From: Campylobacteraceae bacterium | GTDB lineage: Bacteria; Campylobacterota; Campylobacteria; Campylobacterales; Campylobacteraceae | Length of the DNA: 64,000 nucleotides | Direction: 5' to 3' | Assembly: GCA_031268335.1 (NCBI GenBank) | Contig: JAIRXG010000006.1 | Span: 124,001-188,000 of the forward strand | Part shown: in pieces, positions 8,581 through 62,377 of the stretch | How positions within the stretch are numbered: position 1 is the first letter of the stretch | Layout of the letters: each line of letters begins with the position of its first letter | Translations under genes and position numbers: made by a program | The notes under the pieces: generated by a model | Told to the model about the DNA's origin: nothing | Databases searched by the model: none | Seen by the model: only the letters and a program-made list of their open reading frames with translations

Positions 8581-8991
8581 ATGGATTTCATTTCTTTACT
8601 AAAAAGTAGAAATTTAAAGGCTACGCCTCAAAGATTATCAGTATTAGAAGTACTAAACAAAAATAAACATCCTACCATGGAAGAGATTTACGAAGAGATA
8701 AGAAGCGAGTTTCCGTCCATATCTCTTGCTACGGTTTATAAAAATATCAATACATTAAGAGAAAGTGATACTGTCATAGAGATAAATACTCAAAATGGTA
8801 AAACAAGATATGATATCTATATAAAACCGCATACTCATATTATATGTAAAAAGTGCGGTTCGATAAGAGATGTGGATTTTTTAGAGTCTGTATACGAATA
8901 TCAAGAAGAGATTGAAAAAAAATGGCATTTTAATGTTAAAAGAATAGATGTTACAGCTACTGTAGATAATTGTCCGCTTTGCAACTCGTAG
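8581..8991 (+). CDS. perR: Fur-family transcriptional regulator, PerR-like
   Basis: A 136 aa metal-dependent repressor. The N-terminal winged helix spans about residues 1-80 (ATPQRLSVLEVL, SLATVYKNINTLRE). The C-terminal dimerisation/metal domain has HTHIICKKCG and CPLC, giving two CxxC pairs for structural zinc. It directly follows dxs, where C. jejuni has perR (Cj0322), so a peroxide-responsive role is likely, although residues alone do not separate PerR from Fur. A natural target, the peroxiredoxin gene, lies at 15880-16476. Confidence 0.82.
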   Translation: MDFISLLKSRNLKATPQRLSVLEVLNKNKHPTMEEIYEEIRSEFPSISLATVYKNINTLRESDTVIEINTQNGKTRYDIYIKPHTHIICKKCGSIRDVDFLESVYEYQEEIEKKWHFNVKRIDVTATVDNCPLCNS

Positions 8992-9146: not shown

Positions 9147-10757
9147 ATGAATTATTTAAAAAGATTTATATTCTTCAATGTTAGTTTTGCCGTTTTATTC
9201 GTATTTTTTATAGTATTAATAGATTTTATATTAGAGTTTTTTATATCAGCCTATGATGTTAGTTTTGACCCTTTGTTTTTATTGATTTTATTTGCAGCAG
9301 GGCTATTTTTATCTTTTAACAAAAGTCAGATATTTTTTTATCTATTCATATTTTTTATATTTTCATTGCAATTAGTGCAAATTTCATCCATAGTGTATTT
9401 TGGATACTATATACAGCCATCTGAAATAGATAAAATATTTTTAGAATTTTCAGATATAAAAGATGCTGCATTAGCAGAGGCTGATTCTTTTTTATTAATT
9501 CCTATCTCATTAATTATTCCTTTGGCTATAATAATTGCTGCAAATTTTTTTCTCAAAAAAAATAGTTTGAAAATACCGTTTGCTTTTGTGCTTGTTTTGC
9601 TGCTTTTTATTCCTAAAATTGAGAGGGCAACGCGTAGAGATATACAATTTTTCTTTCCTTCTCCCGTTAGATACAGCTTTCACAATACAATAAATACATT
9701 TTCTTTCTATGCCGGAAAAGAGATATGGGTCAATAATAATTTTAAAATGCCGCAAAATTTTTATCTTCCTTACACCGTGGAAAAATATCAACCTAAAGCT
9801 CAAAATATTATTTTGGTTATAGGTGAAAGTGTCAATCCGAACCATCTTTCATTATTTGGCTATGACAGGTTAACAACGCCGTTTTTAAACATGTTAAAAG
9901 AAGACGATAGGTTTGATTATCAAGAGGCGGTATCTGGCGGCGTCTCTACTCATTCGAGTATGGCTTTTTTCCTAAATGGCGTAAGAGAGCCCGGAAATAC
10001 GCAAGAGATAAAATCAAAAACTTTTAATTTATTTAAGCTTGCCAAAGAGCAAGATTTTTCAACGTTTTTTATATCGGCACAAGATGCTAAAATAGCCTAT
10101 GAGATAGGAAATAAATATATTGATGAAATTGTAACTAAAGAAGAGGAGTTTCTTTTATTTAAAACAAAGAGGGATCAGGGGTTATTGGACGTATTGGATG
10201 AACTTGCATTAACGGATAAAAATTTTATCGTTATTCAAATGAGAACACCTCATGCACCATATGAAGATAATTATGACGAAGGTTCTGAATTTGATGTGTT
10301 TAAAGATAAAAGCAAAAGGATTGACACCTATGACAATTCGGTTTTGTATTTTGATTTTGTGTTGAAAAATATTTTTAATAACGTTGAAAAACTTATAAAA
10401 AATAACGGATATTTTATTTTTGTCTCCGATCATGGACAAGTATTTGGTGAAAATGGTTTTTACGGACACAACAAACTTGATATGAGCGTAGCCGCAGTTC
10501 CTTTTTTGTCATATAGCGTAAATGGCGATAAAATACCTTACAAGACACCTTCTCAATATGAAATAGCAGAGTGGATAGGAGAATTATTGGGGTATAAATT
10601 TATAAATCCGAATTTACAAAATAATACCTTCTATGTACATGGAAATAATTTTTTATCGAACTACGAATTTATTTCATACATTAAAATTAACGGCAATATT
10701 GCAAAGCAATCTAAAACAATATTAAATCAATTTATACAAAAATCAAAAGAGAAATAA
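9147..10757 (+). CDS. Phosphoethanolamine transferase-like membrane sulfatase-fold protein
   Basis: An inner-membrane protein of 536 aa. Four or five hydrophobic segments occupy about residues 8-160, followed by a periplasmic alkaline-phosphatase/sulfatase-fold domain. The domain shows VIGESVNPNHLSLFGYDR, which matches the family motif around the metal and nucleophile site, and FVSDHGQVFGENGFYGH, the metal-binding SDHG motif. Family members (EptA, EptC, CptA) transfer phosphoethanolamine to lipid A, LPS core or, in Campylobacter, the flagellar rod. Substrate cannot be named here; flagellar genes appear absent. The gene stands alone, with a weak ribosome-binding site. Confidence 0.8.
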   Translation: MNYLKRFIFFNVSFAVLFVFFIVLIDFILEFFISAYDVSFDPLFLLILFAAGLFLSFNKSQIFFYLFIFFIFSLQLVQISSIVYFGYYIQPSEIDKIFLEFSDIKDAALAEADSFLLIPISLIIPLAIIIAANFFLKKNSLKIPFAFVLVLLLFIPKIERATRRDIQFFFPSPVRYSFHNTINTFSFYAGKEIWVNNNFKMPQNFYLPYTVEKYQPKAQNIILVIGESVNPNHLSLFGYDRLTTPFLNMLKEDDRFDYQEAVSGGVSTHSSMAFFLNGVREPGNTQEIKSKTFNLFKLAKEQDFSTFFISAQDAKIAYEIGNKYIDEIVTKEEEFLLFKTKRDQGLLDVLDELALTDKNFIVIQMRTPHAPYEDNYDEGSEFDVFKDKSKRIDTYDNSVLYFDFVLKNIFNNVEKLIKNNGYFIFVSDHGQVFGENGFYGHNKLDMSVAAVPFLSYSVNGDKIPYKTPSQYEIAEWIGELLGYKFINPNLQNNTFYVHGNNFLSNYEFISYIKINGNIAKQSKTILNQFIQKSKEK

Positions 10758-10926
10758 ATTAATTTTAATAGTTAATATTCTACTTATAGATTATCATTTC
10801 AATAAGGGTATTTTTATAATAAAAAATATACAATGCGCCTAGAAATAGGGAGTTACATAATATAATTTTCTAATTTTCTGTATTTGATTTATTATTAATT
10901 AAATTTATGTTTTATATGGAGGGTAC

Positions 10927-11775
10927 ATGCAAAATCATATCAGCAGAAAAAATCCTACCGCATTTTTATTTGTAGTAGACCAGTCGGCATCTATGGGTTA
11001 CATTATGCCATCCATCGGTAAGCCTAAAGCAAAACATGTAGCAGACGTAATCAACAGGACTATTTTAAATCTTATAGATCTATGCAACAAAGCTGACGGC
11101 GTTAGAGATTATTTTCATGTGGGCGTTATATGCTATAGCGGTAAAGGTATTAGCAATGGTTTATTTAAAGATCCTCAAAAGCCTATTTTAAATCTGATAT
11201 CCGATGCGGCCGTAAATATTATAGGCGTAGAAACCGTAATAGATAAAATTGATAACGGTCTTGGAGAAATTATAGAAAGAAGAGCCGAATTTCCCATATG
11301 GGTAGAAGCCGAAGCAGATGGCGAAACGCCCATGTGCGAAGCATTTGCAAAAGCTAAAGGTGCGCTTGAAGAGTGGTGTAGTGAATATCAAGACAGCTGT
11401 CCTCCTACTTTGATACATGTAACGGATGGCGATTCTACGGATGGGAATCCCGAAGCTATTGCCGAAGAGATTAAAAATATTAGTACTTTGCATGGCAATA
11501 CTCTTTTGTTTAATATACATGTAAGCTCATTTAGTGCAAATATTATTAAATATCCTTACGATGATATGGAGATACAAGACGAATATGCAAAACAATTATT
11601 TAGAATGTCAAGCGTTTTTCCGCAATATTTAGTAGACAAGGCTTTGCAAAGAGGTTATAAAATCAATAACAGCTCTAAAGGTTTTGTATTTAACGCCGAT
11701 GCTGCCGAAATAATGAATTTTTTAGAGATCGGCACATTGCCCGCTACTCAAAGTTGGCAACAATTAGGTTCTTGA
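10927..11775 (+). CDS. TerY-like von Willebrand factor A domain protein
   Basis: A 282 aa cytoplasmic vWA protein. The metal-ion-dependent adhesion site is intact: DQSAS at residues 18-22, a threonine in DGETPM, and an aspartate in HVTDGDS. GGAG precedes the ATG. It is the first gene of a three-gene unit with a PP2C-like phosphatase (overlap of one base, TGATG) and a membrane kinase. This is the arrangement known as the TerY-P triad in tellurium-resistance-linked stress systems. No TerD-type gene is in the window. Its role is probably to scaffold or sense within the phosphorylation module; the signal is unknown. Confidence 0.8.
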   Translation: MQNHISRKNPTAFLFVVDQSASMGYIMPSIGKPKAKHVADVINRTILNLIDLCNKADGVRDYFHVGVICYSGKGISNGLFKDPQKPILNLISDAAVNIIGVETVIDKIDNGLGEIIERRAEFPIWVEAEADGETPMCEAFAKAKGALEEWCSEYQDSCPPTLIHVTDGDSTDGNPEAIAEEIKNISTLHGNTLLFNIHVSSFSANIIKYPYDDMEIQDEYAKQLFRMSSVFPQYLVDKALQRGYKINNSSKGFVFNADAAEIMNFLEIGTLPATQSWQQLGS

Positions 11776-12506
11776 TGGAACTTTTATTTAATGGTTCAAT
11801 TCCTAAAGATTATGCTTTTCCGAATGAAAACGAGGATTGGTTCAATATAAATTTCATAGAACACAATATCAGGATAGCTCTTAGCGATGGAGCGACAGTT
11901 TCTTATAATTCTCAAAAATGGGCTAAAATTTTAGTGGATTATTTTATTGAAACAGGAAACTTTTCCGCCGCGGATGTAAAAAAAGTCATTAGTATTTATT
12001 GTGCAAAAGGGTTCGATTTGAATAATATGACATTGATGCAAAAACGAGGATTTGCATTTGGGAGTTATGCTACGCTTTTGTGCGTGGAGTGTAACTCTTT
12101 CAATAACAATATACGAATTCTAGGCATAGGCGATACTATAGCGGTTTTATTAGATAAAGAGAGTTTTATAGAGGCTTTTCCATATATATCGTCAATGCAA
12201 TTTCTTAAAAATCCTCAAATGCTAAGCACCAACAAGCGAAGCAACTTTTTTTTTGTATACTCAAAAAATCGCTCCAAATTTTATAAAAGATGGGACTTGA
12301 ACTCTATAAAACATCCCGTACTTCTTTGTATGACCGATGCGCTTGGCGAATGGGCGCTAAAAGAGATGGAGAGTGGAAATTGTTTAGTGTGGGAAGAACT
12401 TTTATCCATAAGTAACATAAAAGATTTTAAAAGTTTTGTACAGACTAAACGGGACGACAATATGATGAAAATTGACGATACTACTTTAATCTCAATAATA
12501 TTTTAG
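11775..12506 (+). CDS. PP2C-family serine/threonine phosphatase-like protein
   Basis: This 243 aa protein fits the PP2C_2 type of metal-dependent phosphatase. The start at 11775 overlaps the vWA stop by one base; an in-frame upstream ATG at 11754 lies inside that gene. Key acidic motifs are NED (residues 19-21), SDGA (37-40), a middle GIGD, MTDA in place of TDG, and a terminal DDTTL. All the usual metal-binding aspartates therefore seem present. It probably dephosphorylates targets of the adjacent kinase, as in other vWA/PPM/kinase triads. Confidence 0.78.
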   Translation: MELLFNGSIPKDYAFPNENEDWFNINFIEHNIRIALSDGATVSYNSQKWAKILVDYFIETGNFSAADVKKVISIYCAKGFDLNNMTLMQKRGFAFGSYATLLCVECNSFNNNIRILGIGDTIAVLLDKESFIEAFPYISSMQFLKNPQMLSTNKRSNFFFVYSKNRSKFYKRWDLNSIKHPVLLCMTDALGEWALKEMESGNCLVWEELLSISNIKDFKSFVQTKRDDNMMKIDDTTLISIIF

Positions 12507-12514
12507 GTAGCAAT

Positions 12515-14572
12515 ATGATATATCCGAAATCAGAAGAATATAGGGCGGCTTTTCATCATGTAAAAGATACGCTCACTGACGAAATATTAAAAAATGGCAT
12601 TGTAAAGAGAAATATACTAGGACCGCAGGTATTAAGCGGAAATTTTGCTTATGCATATGAAGTTACATCACAATATAGAATAAAATACGCAGTACGCTGT
12701 TTTCGTTATGATTCCAAAGATCGTAAAGAGCGCTACAAAGCTATTTCAAATTATTTAAAAAAACTAAAATCACCCTATTTTGTAAATTTTGAGTATCAAG
12801 ACGAGGGTATCATAATAAACAATACAAAATTTCCAATTGTGAAAATGGCTTGGGCCGAAGGCGAGCTTTTGGGAGATTTTATAAAAAATAATTATGCAAA
12901 TAGATTTAAAATAAAAAACCTACTTCACTCCATAAGAAAACTTGCCAAATTTATAGAGAAAAGTAATTTTGCTCATGGGGATATACAGCCTAGCAACATT
13001 ATGGTATCAGACAATGGAAGAGTTCTTAAACTCATAGACTATGACGGCATGTATGTGGAAGAGTTGAAAAGCTTTGGAAATGCCGAATGCGGCGTGCCGA
13101 ATTTTCAACATCCCAAACGAAATGGTTTTTGGTCGAAAAAATTGGATAGATTTTCATTCATAGCGCTCTATACGGCATTGTTGGCTTTGATGGATAGGCA
13201 TTATTTGTGGGATGAGACGGATTCGGATGTAGAAACGATACTATTTAGAGCCGAAGATTATACAAATACAAAGAATTCAAAAATTTTCAAAAAATTGTAT
13301 GCTTTGAAATCCATGAAAAAATATGCCGAAAGTTTTGAAAATGTTTGCAACGGACGATTTAGGAATATACCTTCGTTGGATAGTTTTATAAAGGAGAATG
13401 CGACAAAAAGACATACCAGCATTATTGTGCCTATTGCAAGCATAGCCATTGTTTTTTTCATATCGATTTATGCTTATTATAATCAAGTTTCAAGAGTAGG
13501 AAGATCAAGCTCTTTATGGCAAGTTATAACAACTATTTTTTGGCATCAAAATACGGAAAGTGTAAGCATAGATTTATCGCAACCGCAAGATGCTTATTTG
13601 TATGATATTGGAGAGTATGAAATCGCCATCAAACATTTGAAAGCCGCATATGATTTATATTCTAATGACACAAATATCACATTATCGCTTATTATGCTTT
13701 ATGGTATGAGTGGATTTGATGACGATGCGCTTTTAAAATTGGCTTTACCTTTGAAAGAGATGAATATTGAAGATGAGCGGCTGTTTTTTTCATTAGCTGC
13801 TTTATATTGGCGCAGAGACGATTTGGGACAAGCTAAAATATTTATTGATGAATTAAAAGAAAATTTATCTAAAGATATCGGATTGCAAAAGCTTATCGGA
13901 TTGCTCGATGATATAGTGCAAAAAGAGAGCGAATCGTACGATTTATACTATAACGTCTTAAATTTGGAGGCAAGCGCTAAAACCAAATTTGCAACCTCAA
14001 TGGTGTTGTGGGACAGAATAAAATTATATAAAAATATGGAAGAGATGTATAAACAGAGTTTTATAGGTTTTTCTGCGGAGCATAGATTTAATATTGCTTT
14101 ATCATTTAGAGATTGGTTTGAGATATATTCAGGCTATAACACCGCTAAAAGCTTACAAAATCTTAATGATTTACATGAAAAATATCCTATAAATAATTAT
14201 TTGATTTATCAACTTGCGATAAATATCGCCTATCTACATGTGGATGGTTATAATGGAAATTGTGCTCCAAGCTCAAATATATATGCTTATGCCGCCGCTA
14301 TATTGAAAGACGAAGCCAATATTGTCAGCGCAAATCAAGCGTTAAGTTATGCAAGCAGACTATTGGAAACGAGCTTTTCCAAAGCATATGGATATTATGC
14401 GTTAGGATTTGCATATTATGCCAATAATGAATTTGAAAATGCGCAAAAAGCCCTCGTAAATTCTAAAAATTATGCGCAAAAAAATTTAGGCAGCAATATA
14501 GATAGCCTTTTGAGTAAGGTAACGAACAGCCTAACATGTGAGATTGTAATAACCGATTTTCAAAAATTTTAA
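12515..14572 (+). CDS. Membrane protein kinase-like protein with C-terminal TPR region
   Basis: A 685 aa protein with an N-terminal kinase-like domain (about residues 35-285), one transmembrane helix (302-322) and a long helical, TPR-like region (about 355-670). Kinase hallmarks are altered: the VAIK lysine is Arg61 in YAVRCF, HRD is HGD (154-156, HGDIQPSNIM), and DFG is DYD (175-177). Asp156, Asn161 and Asp175 are kept. HGD and DYDG are typical of kinases in vWA/PP2C triads. It follows the phosphatase by 8 bases. The TPR part would face the periplasm if the kinase is cytoplasmic. It overlaps the convergent CAP gene by 4 bases. Confidence 0.75.
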   Translation: MIYPKSEEYRAAFHHVKDTLTDEILKNGIVKRNILGPQVLSGNFAYAYEVTSQYRIKYAVRCFRYDSKDRKERYKAISNYLKKLKSPYFVNFEYQDEGIIINNTKFPIVKMAWAEGELLGDFIKNNYANRFKIKNLLHSIRKLAKFIEKSNFAHGDIQPSNIMVSDNGRVLKLIDYDGMYVEELKSFGNAECGVPNFQHPKRNGFWSKKLDRFSFIALYTALLALMDRHYLWDETDSDVETILFRAEDYTNTKNSKIFKKLYALKSMKKYAESFENVCNGRFRNIPSLDSFIKENATKRHTSIIVPIASIAIVFFISIYAYYNQVSRVGRSSSLWQVITTIFWHQNTESVSIDLSQPQDAYLYDIGEYEIAIKHLKAAYDLYSNDTNITLSLIMLYGMSGFDDDALLKLALPLKEMNIEDERLFFSLAALYWRRDDLGQAKIFIDELKENLSKDIGLQKLIGLLDDIVQKESESYDLYYNVLNLEASAKTKFATSMVLWDRIKLYKNMEEMYKQSFIGFSAEHRFNIALSFRDWFEIYSGYNTAKSLQNLNDLHEKYPINNYLIYQLAINIAYLHVDGYNGNCAPSSNIYAYAAAILKDEANIVSANQALSYASRLLETSFSKAYGYYALGFAYYANNEFENAQKALVNSKNYAQKNLGSNIDSLLSKVTNSLTCEIVITDFQKF

Positions 14573-15753
14573 CGGCGATTGCTTACAAATTCTTTGGCAT
14601 ATTCTATTACGCATATCACGCCGTATTTGCTGTGAGTGTCTATAGCGGTTCCGACATGGTTATATTCTTTATGCATTATATTATCCCTATGTCCCCTTGA
14701 AGAAACTCCATCGTCAATCAAAAGACCGACTACTATTTCTCGCCCGGTATTTGGTTTATAAGCGATGTTTTCACCGGCAATGTTGTAAGTCCCATATCTT
14801 TTTATTCTATCAAACGGAGTACTTCCGTCGCTTCCGCCGTGACCGACTTTGCCCGTTTTGCTTTGGTCTGAAGCGTGATCCTTTGCAGCTCTCCAAAGCC
14901 CTCTGCTTGGTATTAAAAGTTGCACGGGAGACATTTTAGATAAAACCTCGTAACACTCTTGCGCCGCTTTTATTCCTTCTGTTGTTTTTATAGGCATTTT
15001 ATTAGGCGGAGAGTATGCGTTGCCGTTATAATATTCCAATCTTGGTTTTATGTACAAATCCGCATATTTTTTAGGATTTGAGCGAACTTTATTCATCTCT
15101 AAAATAACATCTTTTTCAACCGAAGTCAGATACTGCGCATCTCTTGCCGTGTCCAGAAGCGCTATATTCCAATTTTTGTCGTCAGTGTCTCTTTTGCTTA
15201 GAACGGGTGCATTTTCGCTCAAAACTATATCCACCCACTCGTTATTTGTTATATTGTATTGCGTTTCAAATCTGATTTTTGTCATATAATGGTCTTGCGA
15301 ATATTTTATATCATGTTTTTTTTCATCAAAACTCCAGTCCATTTTTCCTAAATTGTTCACTTTGCCGTTTTTTATTTCAAAAAATAGATCAAGCATTAGC
15401 GTATAAGACAAAATATATCTGTCGGTGCTCTTTTTTAATTCAAGTTGTACTATTTCATACATGTCGGCGCTCAAATCTTTTAGATAAAACAGTCCGTTTT
15501 TATCGGATATTGTTTCATAAATAATGTTATTTTTGCTATTTCGCATAACAATCTTAATACCATCGCTGTCGTTATATATCTCATCGCCAAAATCTGCCCT
15601 AAAAGCGATTTGTCCTACAATAAATGTGTCGGTTTGCGAAGTTAGGATAGCTTTAGGACGAGTAAAGTCTACCTCTTGTTTGCTTGATGACATAGCTATA
15701 CATGTTGCAATGATAATTATCAAAAATACAATAATAACCGATATAAATTTCAT
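14569..15753 (-). CDS. CAP/SCP-superfamily secreted or membrane-anchored protein
   Basis: A 394 aa protein with an N-terminal hydrophobic segment (about residues 2-22, ISVIIVFLIIIIATCIAMS) that could be a membrane anchor or a signal peptide. A beta-rich middle region follows, then a C-terminal CAP domain (about 220-390). CAP motifs are visible: AKDHASDQ, a GHGGSDG stretch, GENIAYKP and HRDNIM. CAP proteins in bacteria act outside the cell, but their activities are mostly unknown. It is convergent with the kinase-TPR gene and may belong to the same accessory block. Confidence 0.78.
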   Translation of the reverse strand: MKFISVIIVFLIIIIATCIAMSSSKQEVDFTRPKAILTSQTDTFIVGQIAFRADFGDEIYNDSDGIKIVMRNSKNNIIYETISDKNGLFYLKDLSADMYEIVQLELKKSTDRYILSYTLMLDLFFEIKNGKVNNLGKMDWSFDEKKHDIKYSQDHYMTKIRFETQYNITNNEWVDIVLSENAPVLSKRDTDDKNWNIALLDTARDAQYLTSVEKDVILEMNKVRSNPKKYADLYIKPRLEYYNGNAYSPPNKMPIKTTEGIKAAQECYEVLSKMSPVQLLIPSRGLWRAAKDHASDQSKTGKVGHGGSDGSTPFDRIKRYGTYNIAGENIAYKPNTGREIVVGLLIDDGVSSRGHRDNIMHKEYNHVGTAIDTHSKYGVICVIEYAKEFVSNRR

Positions 15754-59684: not shown

Positions 59685-60374
59685 TCAATCATCAAATTCT
59701 TTTAGCTTTACACGAAGTTCAGCGTTATTTTTTCCCCTGTGCATAATTTGAAAATGTTCAGGATATTTTTTCAAAATATCCCCCCAACTATTTCCACCAT
59801 AGTTTTTTGAAATGTAATTTGGATTTTTATTTTTTAAATATGTTCCAATTCGCGCAACATAAGCAAATCCATCATCTTTTTTTATGGATACAATAGCATC
59901 TTTTAAAGTTCCAATCAAAAACTTTTCGTCATAATCATCGCTCTCTTTTTTGATTGGCAGTTCAATAAACACAGAACAAGCGTTTCTAAAAGATATATTT
60001 GTCTTTTTTTCACCAAAACCTATCATTTTAATCCCTCTGGATGTTACGGTTTGAGCTATGCTTGTGAAATCGCTGTCGCTTGAAACAATAGCTATAGCAT
60101 CAACGATTTTCTCTTCGCATATTGCTTTCATAACGTCAATCGCTATTTCCATATCGGAAGCATTTTTACTGTTCGTATTTTGCTGGACATGAACGGCTTT
60201 AATACCAAAATCATTCAGTTTATCATGATATTTATTCTGTTTGCTCCAATTAGCATACGCTCTTTTTGATATTACTTTGCCATGAGAGGGTAATTCATTA
60301 AATATATCGTCCAAGTAGTCGCAACTTATATTTTCACAGTCAATAAAGAGAGCTATTTTGTTATCAGTACTCAT
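59685..60374 (-). CDS. NYN-domain (LabA/DUF88-like) RNase with C-terminal OST-HTH/LOTUS domain
   Basis: A 229 aa protein. The N-terminal NYN (PIN-like) nuclease domain has Asp12 and Asn15 (FIDCENIS), Asp74 and Asp80 (NASDMEIAID) and Asp100/Asp102 (SSDSDF), the acidic pattern of a metal-dependent nuclease. The C-terminal 75 residues fit OST-HTH/LOTUS, an RNA-binding fold (ARIGTYLKNKNPNYISKNYG). Its start overlaps the FGE-like gene as ATGA, so the two are made together. The role is unknown; RNA cleavage, perhaps in stress or defence, is an inference. Confidence 0.82.
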   Translation of the reverse strand: MSTDNKIALFIDCENISCDYLDDIFNELPSHGKVISKRAYANWSKQNKYHDKLNDFGIKAVHVQQNTNSKNASDMEIAIDVMKAICEEKIVDAIAIVSSDSDFTSIAQTVTSRGIKMIGFGEKKTNISFRNACSVFIELPIKKESDDYDEKFLIGTLKDAIVSIKKDDGFAYVARIGTYLKNKNPNYISKNYGGNSWGDILKKYPEHFQIMHRGKNNAELRVKLKEFDD

Positions 60375-62377
60375 TTTGCACCTCCTTCATAACAAACGCG
60401 AAAGCAAGTTTCATATCTTGCTACATTATCAAATGCGAAAAGTTCGTCTATGCTTGGGTTATATAAAAAGCAAGTTTTCTCGTCTTCAACAGTTTTTTGA
60501 GAATAATTATATGGTGGATATAGATCAGCAAATCCATTACTAATATAGAAGGATTGGTCTCTTATAAGTTCATTTCCAAATAGCCACTCGCGAAATAGAA
60601 CTTTGTTTGCATAAAATATAAGACCGTCTTTTTCTATATATTTTAAAGGTTTTCTATAAAGCATTAAGACTTTAGTTACATCATCTAAAGCAACCTCTTT
60701 CTTATCAATAAATATCGTCTTATCATCAAACGGATCATTTTTTGAAGTAGGAATTGTACCTCCTTTTGTATTGATAAAAATTGTACCATCAGTTATAATA
60801 AGGCTCATAAGATTGTCGTTATATTCACTTTCATCTGTTTTGGGACAAAGCTGTCTAAACTCCTCCGCTGTTAATAATCTTGCCTTGATTTTGTATTTTT
60901 CCTCCATCCAATTGCAGTAAGCTATTGCATCATATTGCGTAACAGTTATCGGTATATCTTTTTCATATTCAACAAGTTCAACCTCTTTTAAGTCTAAAAA
61001 TTCATTTTTTATATAATCGTCCAATAACTCCTGTATGTTGATTTTGTTTTCCTCTTTAATCGCTTGTAGCTGCAAAGATCTGTTTTTTGCATAATATTTT
61101 AAGAACCCTTCTAATGTAATGCGAGCAGTTTTGATCTTTGGCAATTTTTTACATCTATCTTCTGCATACCTCGTCTCTTCACAAAATTTTAAAAACTCTT
61201 CTATTGTAATGCAGTTTGAAACAAAAAGATTTTTGTCTTCAACCGTTACTCTGTTAAATCCGTCAATCTCTTTTTGTTCGAGTTTTTTCTTGTTGTATTT
61301 ATATGGTGGTCTATATAAGTCTTTTTTGATGTAATAGTTTTTGAGTATCTCATTTTCTGGTAAGCTATAAAGCTGATTATTAGCACAAAACTCAATTTTA
61401 GCTTCATGCAGATCTTTTTCAAACCATAAGCTAACCTGCTTTGCAGTTTTTACATCTCCTTTAAAGCCAAAATATTGCCATCTTTTAAAATCATAATCTT
61501 CATTAAAAACCGACGAAACATATTTGTGTTTTAAATATTTATATAGAGGGTCGTGCTTTTCTGTCCTTAAATTTTTAAAAATAAAATCATATTTACCGTC
61601 CGCCGCTTTTAAAAAAATCAGATGCTCTGAAAAAGGTATCACCTCTATCCAGCCCTTTTCTGCCTTTAAAAGTATATCATGAATATATTGCGCGATTTTT
61701 ACATACTCTTTTTGTTCAACTAAACCTTTATAATCTTGATAGCATTGGTAGATATATTTATTTTGAGTGTTGTCCCCATTTTTTATAAACAGATCGCTTA
61801 TAAGATTTTTGTAAGGTGTTAGTATATGGTTATATACAGGTATTGTAAAATCGGCTTTTTTCCATGAATGCAACAATCTTTCATATTCTTCGGTTTCCAT
61901 AAATTTTTTCATAGTATTAAAGCATTCAATTTGATTGTCATGTGGTGGATACAATTTTAACTGCGAAGAAAACCAATCAGAAGCATCAAGCATTTTGCAG
62001 CCATATCCTGTAAAAATTGCTTTCGGTAGCGGTCTGCCTGATAAAAACAGTCTATCGCTTATTTGACGTGTAGTGAAGTCTATCATTGGTGAAGATAAAA
62101 TATTTTTTTCGTCATCAACATAGTTAGTTAATCCATTTTTTTCTAAAAACGGAACTATCTCTTCAGAGTAAGCCTTGAGATAATCATTCCAAGCTTTATA
62201 GTCTAAAACTTTTGCAACAGAATTTAGATAAGTGCTTATAGTGAACTTATCATCTTTTTCTTTGGTTAAAATAGATTTATCAAAATTTTTGATAATTTTT
62301 TGGCCCAAGCTATTTAGCGGACAACTGCGAGAGTGAAACTTAGCATTTGGCTGTGTGGGGAAGTATTTTGTTGACAT
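60371..62377 (-). CDS. Formylglycine-generating-enzyme (SUMF1)-like protein with long N-terminal region
   Basis: A 668 aa protein. Residues 1-370 match no family I recognise and carry many aromatic and charged residues. The C-terminal 290 residues resemble the FGE-sulfatase/SUMF1 fold: CITIEEFLKFCEET (about 389-402), PITVTQYDAIAYCNWMEE (476-493), ARLLTAEEFRQLCP (499-512) and a terminal CFRVCYEGG. The usual RGGSW-type active-site region is not evident, so it may bind peptide or ligand rather than oxidise a cysteine. It is coupled to the NYN gene downstream. ATCTCC-type Shine-Dalgarno complement (TAGGAGAT) lies before the ATG. Confidence 0.68.
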   Translation of the reverse strand: MSTKYFPTQPNAKFHSRSCPLNSLGQKIIKNFDKSILTKEKDDKFTISTYLNSVAKVLDYKAWNDYLKAYSEEIVPFLEKNGLTNYVDDEKNILSSPMIDFTTRQISDRLFLSGRPLPKAIFTGYGCKMLDASDWFSSQLKLYPPHDNQIECFNTMKKFMETEEYERLLHSWKKADFTIPVYNHILTPYKNLISDLFIKNGDNTQNKYIYQCYQDYKGLVEQKEYVKIAQYIHDILLKAEKGWIEVIPFSEHLIFLKAADGKYDFIFKNLRTEKHDPLYKYLKHKYVSSVFNEDYDFKRWQYFGFKGDVKTAKQVSLWFEKDLHEAKIEFCANNQLYSLPENEILKNYYIKKDLYRPPYKYNKKKLEQKEIDGFNRVTVEDKNLFVSNCITIEEFLKFCEETRYAEDRCKKLPKIKTARITLEGFLKYYAKNRSLQLQAIKEENKINIQELLDDYIKNEFLDLKEVELVEYEKDIPITVTQYDAIAYCNWMEEKYKIKARLLTAEEFRQLCPKTDESEYNDNLMSLIITDGTIFINTKGGTIPTSKNDPFDDKTIFIDKKEVALDDVTKVLMLYRKPLKYIEKDGLIFYANKVLFREWLFGNELIRDQSFYISNGFADLYPPYNYSQKTVEDEKTCFLYNPSIDELFAFDNVARYETCFRVCYEGGAK

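What the first reader, a model, noticed from the sequence alone, without database searches (positions are those of the whole stretch)
10927..14572. vWA / PP2C / membrane kinase-TPR triad of TerY-P type
Three genes with one-base and 8-base spacing encode a MIDAS-intact vWA protein, a PP2C-like phosphatase with its acidic residues, and a kinase-like protein anchored by one transmembrane helix with a long TPR region on the other side. Triads of vWA, phosphatase and kinase are known from comparative work on tellurium-resistance stress systems. Here the TerD-type partners are missing, and the TPR region would lie outside the cytoplasm. It looks like a complete transmembrane phospho-signalling device with unknown input and target.
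Basis: partly seen in the sequence, partly recalled or inferred. Interest (0 to 1): 0.65.

Follow-up and report, generated by a model that had tools for sequence, protein, structure and literature searches.

The report
Membrane-anchored TerY-P kinase-phosphatase triad
Three neighbouring genes of an uncultured Campylobacteraceae bacterium encode a known kind of kinase-phosphatase switch (best known from anti-phage defence), but here the kinase has been rebuilt like a cell-surface receptor, with a helix through the membrane and a protein-binding coil predicted outside it.

Summary
Genes 10927-14572 encode a vWA protein with intact MIDAS, a PP2C with its metal-binding acids, and a protein kinase followed by one transmembrane helix and a TPR-like solenoid. 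All three match PADLOC's TerY / PP2C / STK_OB models strongly (5.6e-98, 1e-68, 3.4e-111), so the triad is a known kind, TerY-P. What differs is the kinase's C-terminal half: the OB domain of the stand-alone anti-phage form is absent, replaced by helix plus ~320-residue solenoid with two invariant cysteines in 11 of 11 complete relatives. This receptor-like form sits at one locus, downstream of perR, in 11 of 11 genus genomes whose flanks are readable; a twelfth, on a short contig, has a copy truncated after the helix. One syntenic genome lacks the triad. None of 393 sampled genomes of the phylum outside the genus has it. All three genes are under purifying selection. Elsewhere one Chlorobiota-labelled triad also has kinase-helix-TPR. 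Best reading: a membrane-spanning TerY-P switch, probably defence-derived, sensing an envelope or periplasmic protein; ligand, substrate and even kinase activity (beta-3 Lys is mostly Arg in this branch) are unproven.

The parts
10801..10835 (+). Conserved block upstream of terY (contains TATAAT), probable promoter of the triad
   Evidence: Same block in window, L026 and L027 (3 of 3 compared in this clade); a different conserved block holds the same place in 8 of 8 loci of the other clade. The consensus scan is not above shuffles (21 against 20.2), so only conservation supports it.
10918..10923 (+). Shine-Dalgarno-like GGAGGG before terY
   Evidence: read from sequence
10927..11775 (+). terY: stand-alone vWA protein, 282 aa, MIDAS DxSxS...T...D intact (D18, S20, S22, T134, D167)
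   Evidence: PADLOC TerY 5.6e-98; motif counts
11775..12506 (+). PP2C-type phosphatase, 243 aa, ATG overlaps terY stop by one base
   Evidence: PADLOC PP2C 1e-68, match begins at this Met; acids invariant
12515..14572 (+). Ser/Thr-kinase-like membrane protein, 685 aa
   Evidence: PADLOC STK_OB 3.4e-111 over residues 1-311, model 1-313 of 562; model m287b5cf4810d mean pLDDT 85.5
12515..13384 (+). kinase domain, residues 1-290; HGD, N161, DYDG; beta-3 Lys replaced by Arg61
   Evidence: Pfam Pkinase 2.3e-10; VIA Z 17.1, rmsd 3.8, 251 aligned to PKR 6d3k_C; motifs
13424..13492 (+). transmembrane helix, residues 304-326
   Evidence: hydropathy in relatives, helix in model
13607..14569 (+). predicted extracytoplasmic TPR-like solenoid, residues 365-685
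   Evidence: models; best Foldseek matches are TPR proteins, first LbcA 7rqf (E 1.9e-4); weak Pfam TPR
14261..14263 (+). Cys583, one of two invariant ectodomain cysteines
14537..14539 (+). Cys675, the other invariant ectodomain cysteine
8581..8991 (+). Fur-family (PerR-like) gene, constant upstream neighbour; core gene of the family, not part of the triad
   Evidence: Pfam FUR 6.6e-32; upstream of the triad in 11 of 11 loci with readable flank, directly in 9 and with an EptA-like gene between in 2; present in 58 of 61 family genomes, most of other genera. The name PerR is recalled from likeness, not tested.

Best explanation
A membrane-spanning variant of the TerY-P triad. The kinase domain, the PP2C and the vWA protein work in the cytoplasm as an opposed phosphorylation switch with a metal-dependent (MIDAS) adaptor; the kinase is held in the inner membrane by one helix, and its TPR solenoid lies in the periplasm, stabilised by one disulphide (Cys583-Cys675), where it binds an envelope or periplasmic protein. 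Binding changes the kinase's clustering or conformation, it phosphorylates itself, TerY or another protein, and PP2C resets the switch. It arose once in this genus from the branch of stand-alone anti-phage TerY-P kinases by exchange of the OB domain for the membrane sensor, and is now kept at a fixed locus. Shown: gene content, family, motifs, hydrophobic helix, cysteine conservation, single grouping in the tree, fixed locus, purifying selection; predicted: solenoid fold. Inferred: topology, disulphide, ligand type, phosphotransfer, direction of the domain exchange, and that the threat sensed (phage or other envelope damage) continues the ancestral defence role.
For: Strong match of all three proteins to the TerY / PP2C / STK_OB set (genus relatives). 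Tight gene order in all 12 genus copies. Kinase half conserved (60-63% between the two clades), ectodomain 31-35%, yet both purifying: dN/dS 0.03-0.09 kinase, 0.05-0.09 TerY, 0.08-0.16 PP2C, 0.13-0.24 ectodomain over 9 pairs, 0.06-0.10 dxs over 8 pairs. Single membrane helix and solenoid with confident model. Two cysteines are common to all ectodomains, 11 of 11, which fits an oxidising compartment. Top Foldseek match of the solenoid alone is LbcA, which I recall as a periplasmic TPR lipoprotein. Kinase tree: the 12 genus rows are one group (100*), inside a starred group of 26 rows (12 genus, 14 others); of the 8 of these 14 whose tails were printed, 7 look OB-like by eye and one is L049. Only one Pfam Pkinase place in the held genome.
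Against: Flanking charges do not fix the topology (read by eye from the alignment). beta-3 Lys is Arg in all 11 here and in 63 of 71 others, so catalysis is not assured. One genus copy (G406) ends soon after the helix with no solenoid, and one genome (G398) lacks the triad altogether. FHA readers: 0 of 14 genomes, and no conserved effector gene was seen. Both structure models are predictions; the solenoid's VIA Z of 14.0 at best (119 aligned, rmsd 2.8) is in the range that the tool warns is common for helical repeats. No phage or expression data.
Confidence: 0.52

Rival explanations
1. It is an ordinary anti-phage TerY-P system acting inside the cell; the helix merely tethers the kinase and the TPR part is a scaffold whose outside location, if real, is not a sensor.
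For: PADLOC profiles; stand-alone three-gene layout as in tested TerY-P; in print TerY-P protects P. aeruginosa against Autographiviridae with most cells surviving (PMC10889362, passages); C-terminal halves vary widely in the family (OB, coiled coil/HHH, TPR, WD40).
Against: OB domain absent; fixed chromosomal locus in 11 of 11 readable loci instead of a shuffled defence island; genome G403 carries the genus form plus an STK_OB triad, and G232 the genus form plus an STK_OB fragment, which suggests separate jobs.
Confidence: 0.24
2. It is a housekeeping envelope or oxidative-stress regulator of this genus, tied to its neighbour perR and to ahpC, with no defence role.
For: Downstream of perR in 11 of 11 readable loci, with ahpC close by in the window; purifying selection as strong as on dxs for TerY and kinase domain.
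Against: perR and ahpC are neighbours in sister genera without the triad, so the triad was inserted into an older context; terY has a conserved upstream block of its own; ahpC was not seen near it in the loci of the other clade; loss is tolerated.
Confidence: 0.14
3. The kinase is a pseudokinase or transfers another group; the triad is a scaffold for assembly at the membrane, not a phosphorylation switch.
For: beta-3 Lys replaced by Arg in 74 of 82 aligned kinases.
Against: Catalytic Asp, Asn and the Asp of the DFG position invariant in 82 of 82; a PP2C with full metal set next to it.
Confidence: 0.1

Closest known systems
Stand-alone anti-phage TerY-P (TerY, PP2C, STK-OB; Gao et al. 2020, seen through PMC7699616 and PMC11090510, passages)
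   Same: Same three genes, all matching the PADLOC models; kinase domain of the same branch; no other obligatory gene seen.
   Different: OB-fold C-terminus missing, replaced by transmembrane helix and solenoid; fixed, nearly genus-wide locus.
TerY-P triad with zinc-ribbon kinase of CoCoNuT systems, and the TerY-P islands of H. pylori (PMC11090510, PMC4978471, passages)
   Same: vWA + PP2C + kinase triad; the H. pylori and Sulfurimonas islands are also Campylobacterota.
   Different: No zinc ribbon, and no helicase, McrBC, FtsK/WXG or nuclease neighbours here.
Actinobacterial vWA / PP2C / kinase sets with TM helices near GAP1-N2 systems (PMC7159879, one passage)
   Same: Kinase fused to TM helices next to PP2C and a stand-alone vWA is already in print.
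   Different: Different neighbourhood; no periplasmic TPR described in the passage seen.
Chlorobiota-labelled triad L049 (this work)
   Same: Kinase, one TM helix, TPR (Pfam TPR_1 4.7e-11), TerY and PP2C beside it.
   Different: Shorter C-terminal part; not detected by the genus ectodomain profile at E <= 10, so probably a separate exchange.
Receptor-type bacterial Ser/Thr kinases (PknB / PASTA kinases; recalled)
   Same: Cytoplasmic kinase, one helix, outside sensor, partner PP2C.
   Different: Other kinase branch, beta-3 Arg, TPR instead of PASTA, vWA partner.

Membership tests
TerY-P triad (broad sense: TerY-like vWA + PP2C + Ser/Thr kinase together) | TerY-like vWA with MIDAS | tested here: met
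   PADLOC 5.6e-98; 5 MIDAS residues in 11 of 11 genus rows
TerY-P triad (broad sense: TerY-like vWA + PP2C + Ser/Thr kinase together) | PP2C phosphatase with metal-binding acids | tested here: met
   PADLOC 1e-68; acids in 11 of 11
TerY-P triad (broad sense: TerY-like vWA + PP2C + Ser/Thr kinase together) | kinase domain of the TerY-P branch next to them | tested here: met
   PADLOC STK_OB 3.4e-111 residues 1-311; tree; one-base overlap and 8-base gap
Stand-alone anti-phage TerY-P (STK-OB form) | C-terminal OB fold of the kinase | tested here: not met
   Profile match stops at 313 of 562, while the control L034 from the same genus matches 1-517; C-terminal half is all helix in the models
Stand-alone anti-phage TerY-P (STK-OB form) | protects against phages | not testable with these tools
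   no assay
Tellurium-resistance ter systems | TerD-family partners | tested here: not met
   none in the window's genome (85% complete); 1 of 14 genus genomes
Receptor-type Ser/Thr kinase | cytoplasmic kinase, single membrane helix, extracytoplasmic domain | tested here: inconclusive
   Helix and domain order met; sidedness inferred from ATP need, single helix and invariant Cys pair
Receptor-type Ser/Thr kinase | beta-3 lysine of active Hanks kinases | tested here: not met
   Arg61; Arg in 74 of 82, Lys in 8 of 82

The most novel reading that the evidence does not exclude
A phage-defence triad converted into a true transmembrane receptor: a TerY-P kinase that reads a periplasmic protein (for instance an adsorbing phage part or a stress-exposed envelope protein) through a disulphide-locked TPR solenoid and signals inward with its vWA and PP2C partners, kept as a near-core sensor of a whole genus, with a second, apparently independent conversion in a Chlorobiota-labelled genome (L049).
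Probability: 0.35. Interest if true: 0.68.

Novelty: new variant of a known kind. Interest (0 to 1): 0.5.

Why it matters
How TerY-P systems sense infection is, in the passages seen here, not explained. A form whose sensor appears to be outside the membrane would turn that into a testable question: the soluble ectodomain can be expressed and used to look for its ligand, and the same kinase branch can be compared across OB, coiled-coil, WD40 and TPR tails. It would also be an example of a defence module becoming a near-core sensor.

Tried and rejected
Triad as chance neighbours: rejected (TerY in 75 and PP2C in 77 of 80 kinase loci; the exceptions L057, L076, L081, L090, L104 are at contig ends). 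Mobile or phage-borne origin in this window: no ectodomain match in the phage collection at E <= 1e-3, no confirmed TerY relative in viral contigs, and kinase matches in only 2 of 72,556 plasmid records, both cyanobacterial.

Absence in G405 (94% complete) as evidence of loss: rejected, because dxs and the perR orthologue are missing there too, so the region is probably an assembly gap. Absence in G398 is accepted: dxs-perR-CAP-ahpC on one contig, no remnant by tblastn at E <= 0.01.

Simple vertical inheritance: not clean. RpoB (14 genomes) groups G000, G401, G397, G398 and G406, as the triad does for those that have it, but dxs+hisC (11 genomes) place G399 and G403 nearer to them; the branch between the two triad clades (about 1.4 changes per column) is also out of proportion to RpoB. 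An old replacement of the triad in one clade is possible; I did not resolve it.

perR as functional partner: weakened, since perR-ahpC adjacency is older than the triad. Diversifying selection on the ectodomain: not found, dN/dS 0.13-0.24, with synonymous changes near saturation in many pairs. FHA-type reader: 0 of 14 genomes. Promoter/terminator consensus scan: not above shuffles. TPR by sequence against solved structures: best E 0.091, uninformative. The full-length fold search listed kinase matches; a separate ectodomain model was needed. A guess of an alpha-C Glu at residue 93 was not supported and is not used.

Literature: searches 'TerY-P'+phage, TerY+PP2C+kinase+triad, tellurium resistance etc., TerY+kinase+phosphatase+antiphage defense, TerY+tetratricopeptide+kinase+transmembrane+TerD listed no paper whose title or passages seen describe a TerY-P kinase with a periplasmic TPR. 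Gao et al. 2020 and Anantharaman et al. 2012 were not read; an id that I recalled for the latter is not held. The listing for termite-gut Campylobacteraceae held nothing useful; that these MAG isolate codes belong to termite-gut sets is recalled only.
Full report
WHAT IS THERE. terY is 10927-11775, the PP2C gene starts at ATG 11775 inside the terY stop (TGATG) and ends at 12506, and the kinase gene runs 12515-14572 after an 8-base gap. Pfam sees the vWA and PP2C only weakly (0.0015 and 0.2, both below cut-off) and the kinase clearly (2.3e-10). PADLOC's models named TerY, PP2C and STK_OB match at 5.6e-98, 1e-68 and 3.4e-111. That these three models together make PADLOC's TerY-P system is recalled; that TerY-P with an OB-fused kinase is a stand-alone anti-phage system is in print (PMC11090510, passages; PMC7699616, passage).

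THE DIFFERENCE. The STK_OB match covers residues 1-311 and model positions 1-313 of 562, whereas a second, canonical kinase from a genome of the same genus (L034) matches to position 517. In place of the OB domain the window protein has one hydrophobic helix and then about 320 residues that AlphaFold builds as a helical solenoid with high confidence (mean pLDDT 85.5; solenoid 365-684). The solenoid alone (pLDDT 78.9, pTM 0.77) finds TPR proteins at the top of the Foldseek list, first LbcA 7rqf_A (E 1.9e-4), then a consensus TPR; VIA-align Z is 14.0, rmsd 2.8 over 119 residues at best, a range in which the tool itself warns of common arrangements, so 'TPR-like' is as far as I go.

SIDEDNESS. 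The kinase domain needs ATP and there is one membrane helix, so the solenoid should be outside. In 11 of 11 complete genus kinases two cysteines of the ectodomain are conserved (583 and 675 here), with one extra in G401 (520) and one at the membrane edge in G404, in a domain that is only 31-35% identical between the two clades. I read them as a disulphide; the distance in the model was not measured.

CATALYTIC PARTS. All five MIDAS residues, the PP2C acids and the kinase H-G-D, N and D-Y-D-G are invariant in the 11 genus rows and nearly so in the 65-71 others aligned. The beta-3 lysine is Arg in 11 of 11 genus kinases and in 63 of 71 others (Lys in 8). This is a property of the whole branch and leaves its chemistry open.

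DISTRIBUTION. In a sample of 397 genomes of the phylum, 4 carry the kinase and the same 4 carry TerY; all 4 are of this genus, none of the other 393. H. pylori islands with a TerY-P triad are in print (PMC4978471, passages) and were not caught at these thresholds and in this sample. In the genus, 12 of 14 genomes have it. Of the two without, G398 keeps dxs-perR-CAP-ahpC on one contig with no trace of the triad, most simply a loss, since RpoB puts it among carriers; G405 also lacks dxs and this perR and says nothing. In 11 of 11 loci with readable flank the triad lies downstream of perR, directly in 9 and with an EptA-like gene between in 2 (window and G401), and dxs and hisC stand before perR in the 10 loci long enough to show them (the twelfth carrier, G406, lies on a 4-kb contig). 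perR itself is family-wide (58 of 61) and in sister genera dxs-perR-ahpC stand together without a triad (L152-L155), so the triad was probably inserted there. One copy, G406, stops soon after the helix (362 aa).

ORIGIN. In a tree of 83 kinase domains the 12 genus rows form one group (100*), inside a starred group of 26 rows; of the 14 others in it, the tails of 8 were printed and 7 look OB-like by eye, the eighth being L049. The genus ectodomain profile finds no other C-terminal part of the set even at E <= 10. C-terminal scans of 66 of 70 non-genus loci gave TPR in two, L049 (with a TM helix) and L088 (without), and WD40 in L085 and L108; Paenibacillus and several other kinases have TM helices, some with helix-hairpin-helix matches in the tail. 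So the tail is the exchangeable part of this kinase family, and kinase-TM-TPR was found in this genus and in L049.

SELECTION AND EXPRESSION. Over nine pairs dN/dS is 0.03-0.09 for the kinase domain, 0.05-0.09 for TerY, 0.08-0.16 for PP2C and 0.13-0.24 for the ectodomain; dxs gives 0.06-0.10 over eight pairs. All parts are kept; the ectodomain is freer, not positively selected as a whole. A block upstream of terY is conserved within each clade (3 of 3 and 8 of 8 compared), and gene spacing is tight everywhere, so one transcript is likely but unproven.

MECHANISM. The most likely machine is a phosphorylation switch across the inner membrane: the outside solenoid binds a protein, the kinase inside acts, the vWA protein is adaptor or substrate, PP2C resets. 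A defence role is favoured by descent and by reports that TerY-P protects cells (PMC10889362, passages; PMC7699616, passage), while the fixed locus and the coexistence with STK_OB genes in G403 and G232 speak for a separate or changed task. I hold the membrane switch at about one half and its use (phage or other envelope threat) as open.

NOVELTY. The triad is known; kinase fused to TM helices next to PP2C and vWA is also in print (PMC7159879, one passage). A TerY-P kinase with an outside TPR domain was not found in the searches. Hence: new variant of a known kind.

Noticed in passing
window 9147-10757 (+): EptA-like phosphoethanolamine transferase (Pfam Sulfatase 1.1e-27, NCBIfam EptA 1.1e-19) sits between perR and terY here and in G401 only; absent at that place in the other loci.
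   Followed up: partly
window 14569-15753 (-): CAP/SCP-domain protein convergent with the kinase gene, the two ends overlapping by 4 bases; present also in G397 and G398, not found there in G401.
   Followed up: partly
L034 (G403) and L035 (G232): Genomes G403 and G232 carry, besides the genus form, a canonical STK_OB triad (G403) or an STK_OB C-terminal fragment at a contig edge (G232).
   Followed up: partly
G355 contig C21:10586-13154: Three TerD-family genes in a row, the only TerD in 14 genus genomes.
   Followed up: no
L049, L085, L088, L108: TerY-P kinases elsewhere carry TPR (L049 with, L088 without TM helix) or WD40 propellers (L085, L108) as C-terminal parts.
   Followed up: partly
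window 12695-12697 (kinase residue 61) and family alignment: The beta-3 lysine is arginine in 74 of 82 TerY-P-type kinases, an odd trait for the whole branch.
   Followed up: partly
dxs and hisC of G399 and G403 (L028, L031): The dxs+hisC tree conflicts with RpoB, perR and triad trees for these genomes, which hints at recombination just upstream of perR.
   Followed up: partly
window 60371-62377 (-), next to tRNA-Arg 62827: 668-aa protein of unknown kind in a low-GC stretch (0.30-0.31) beside a tRNA gene; its C-terminal part looks like a formylglycine-generating-enzyme domain by eye.
   Followed up: no
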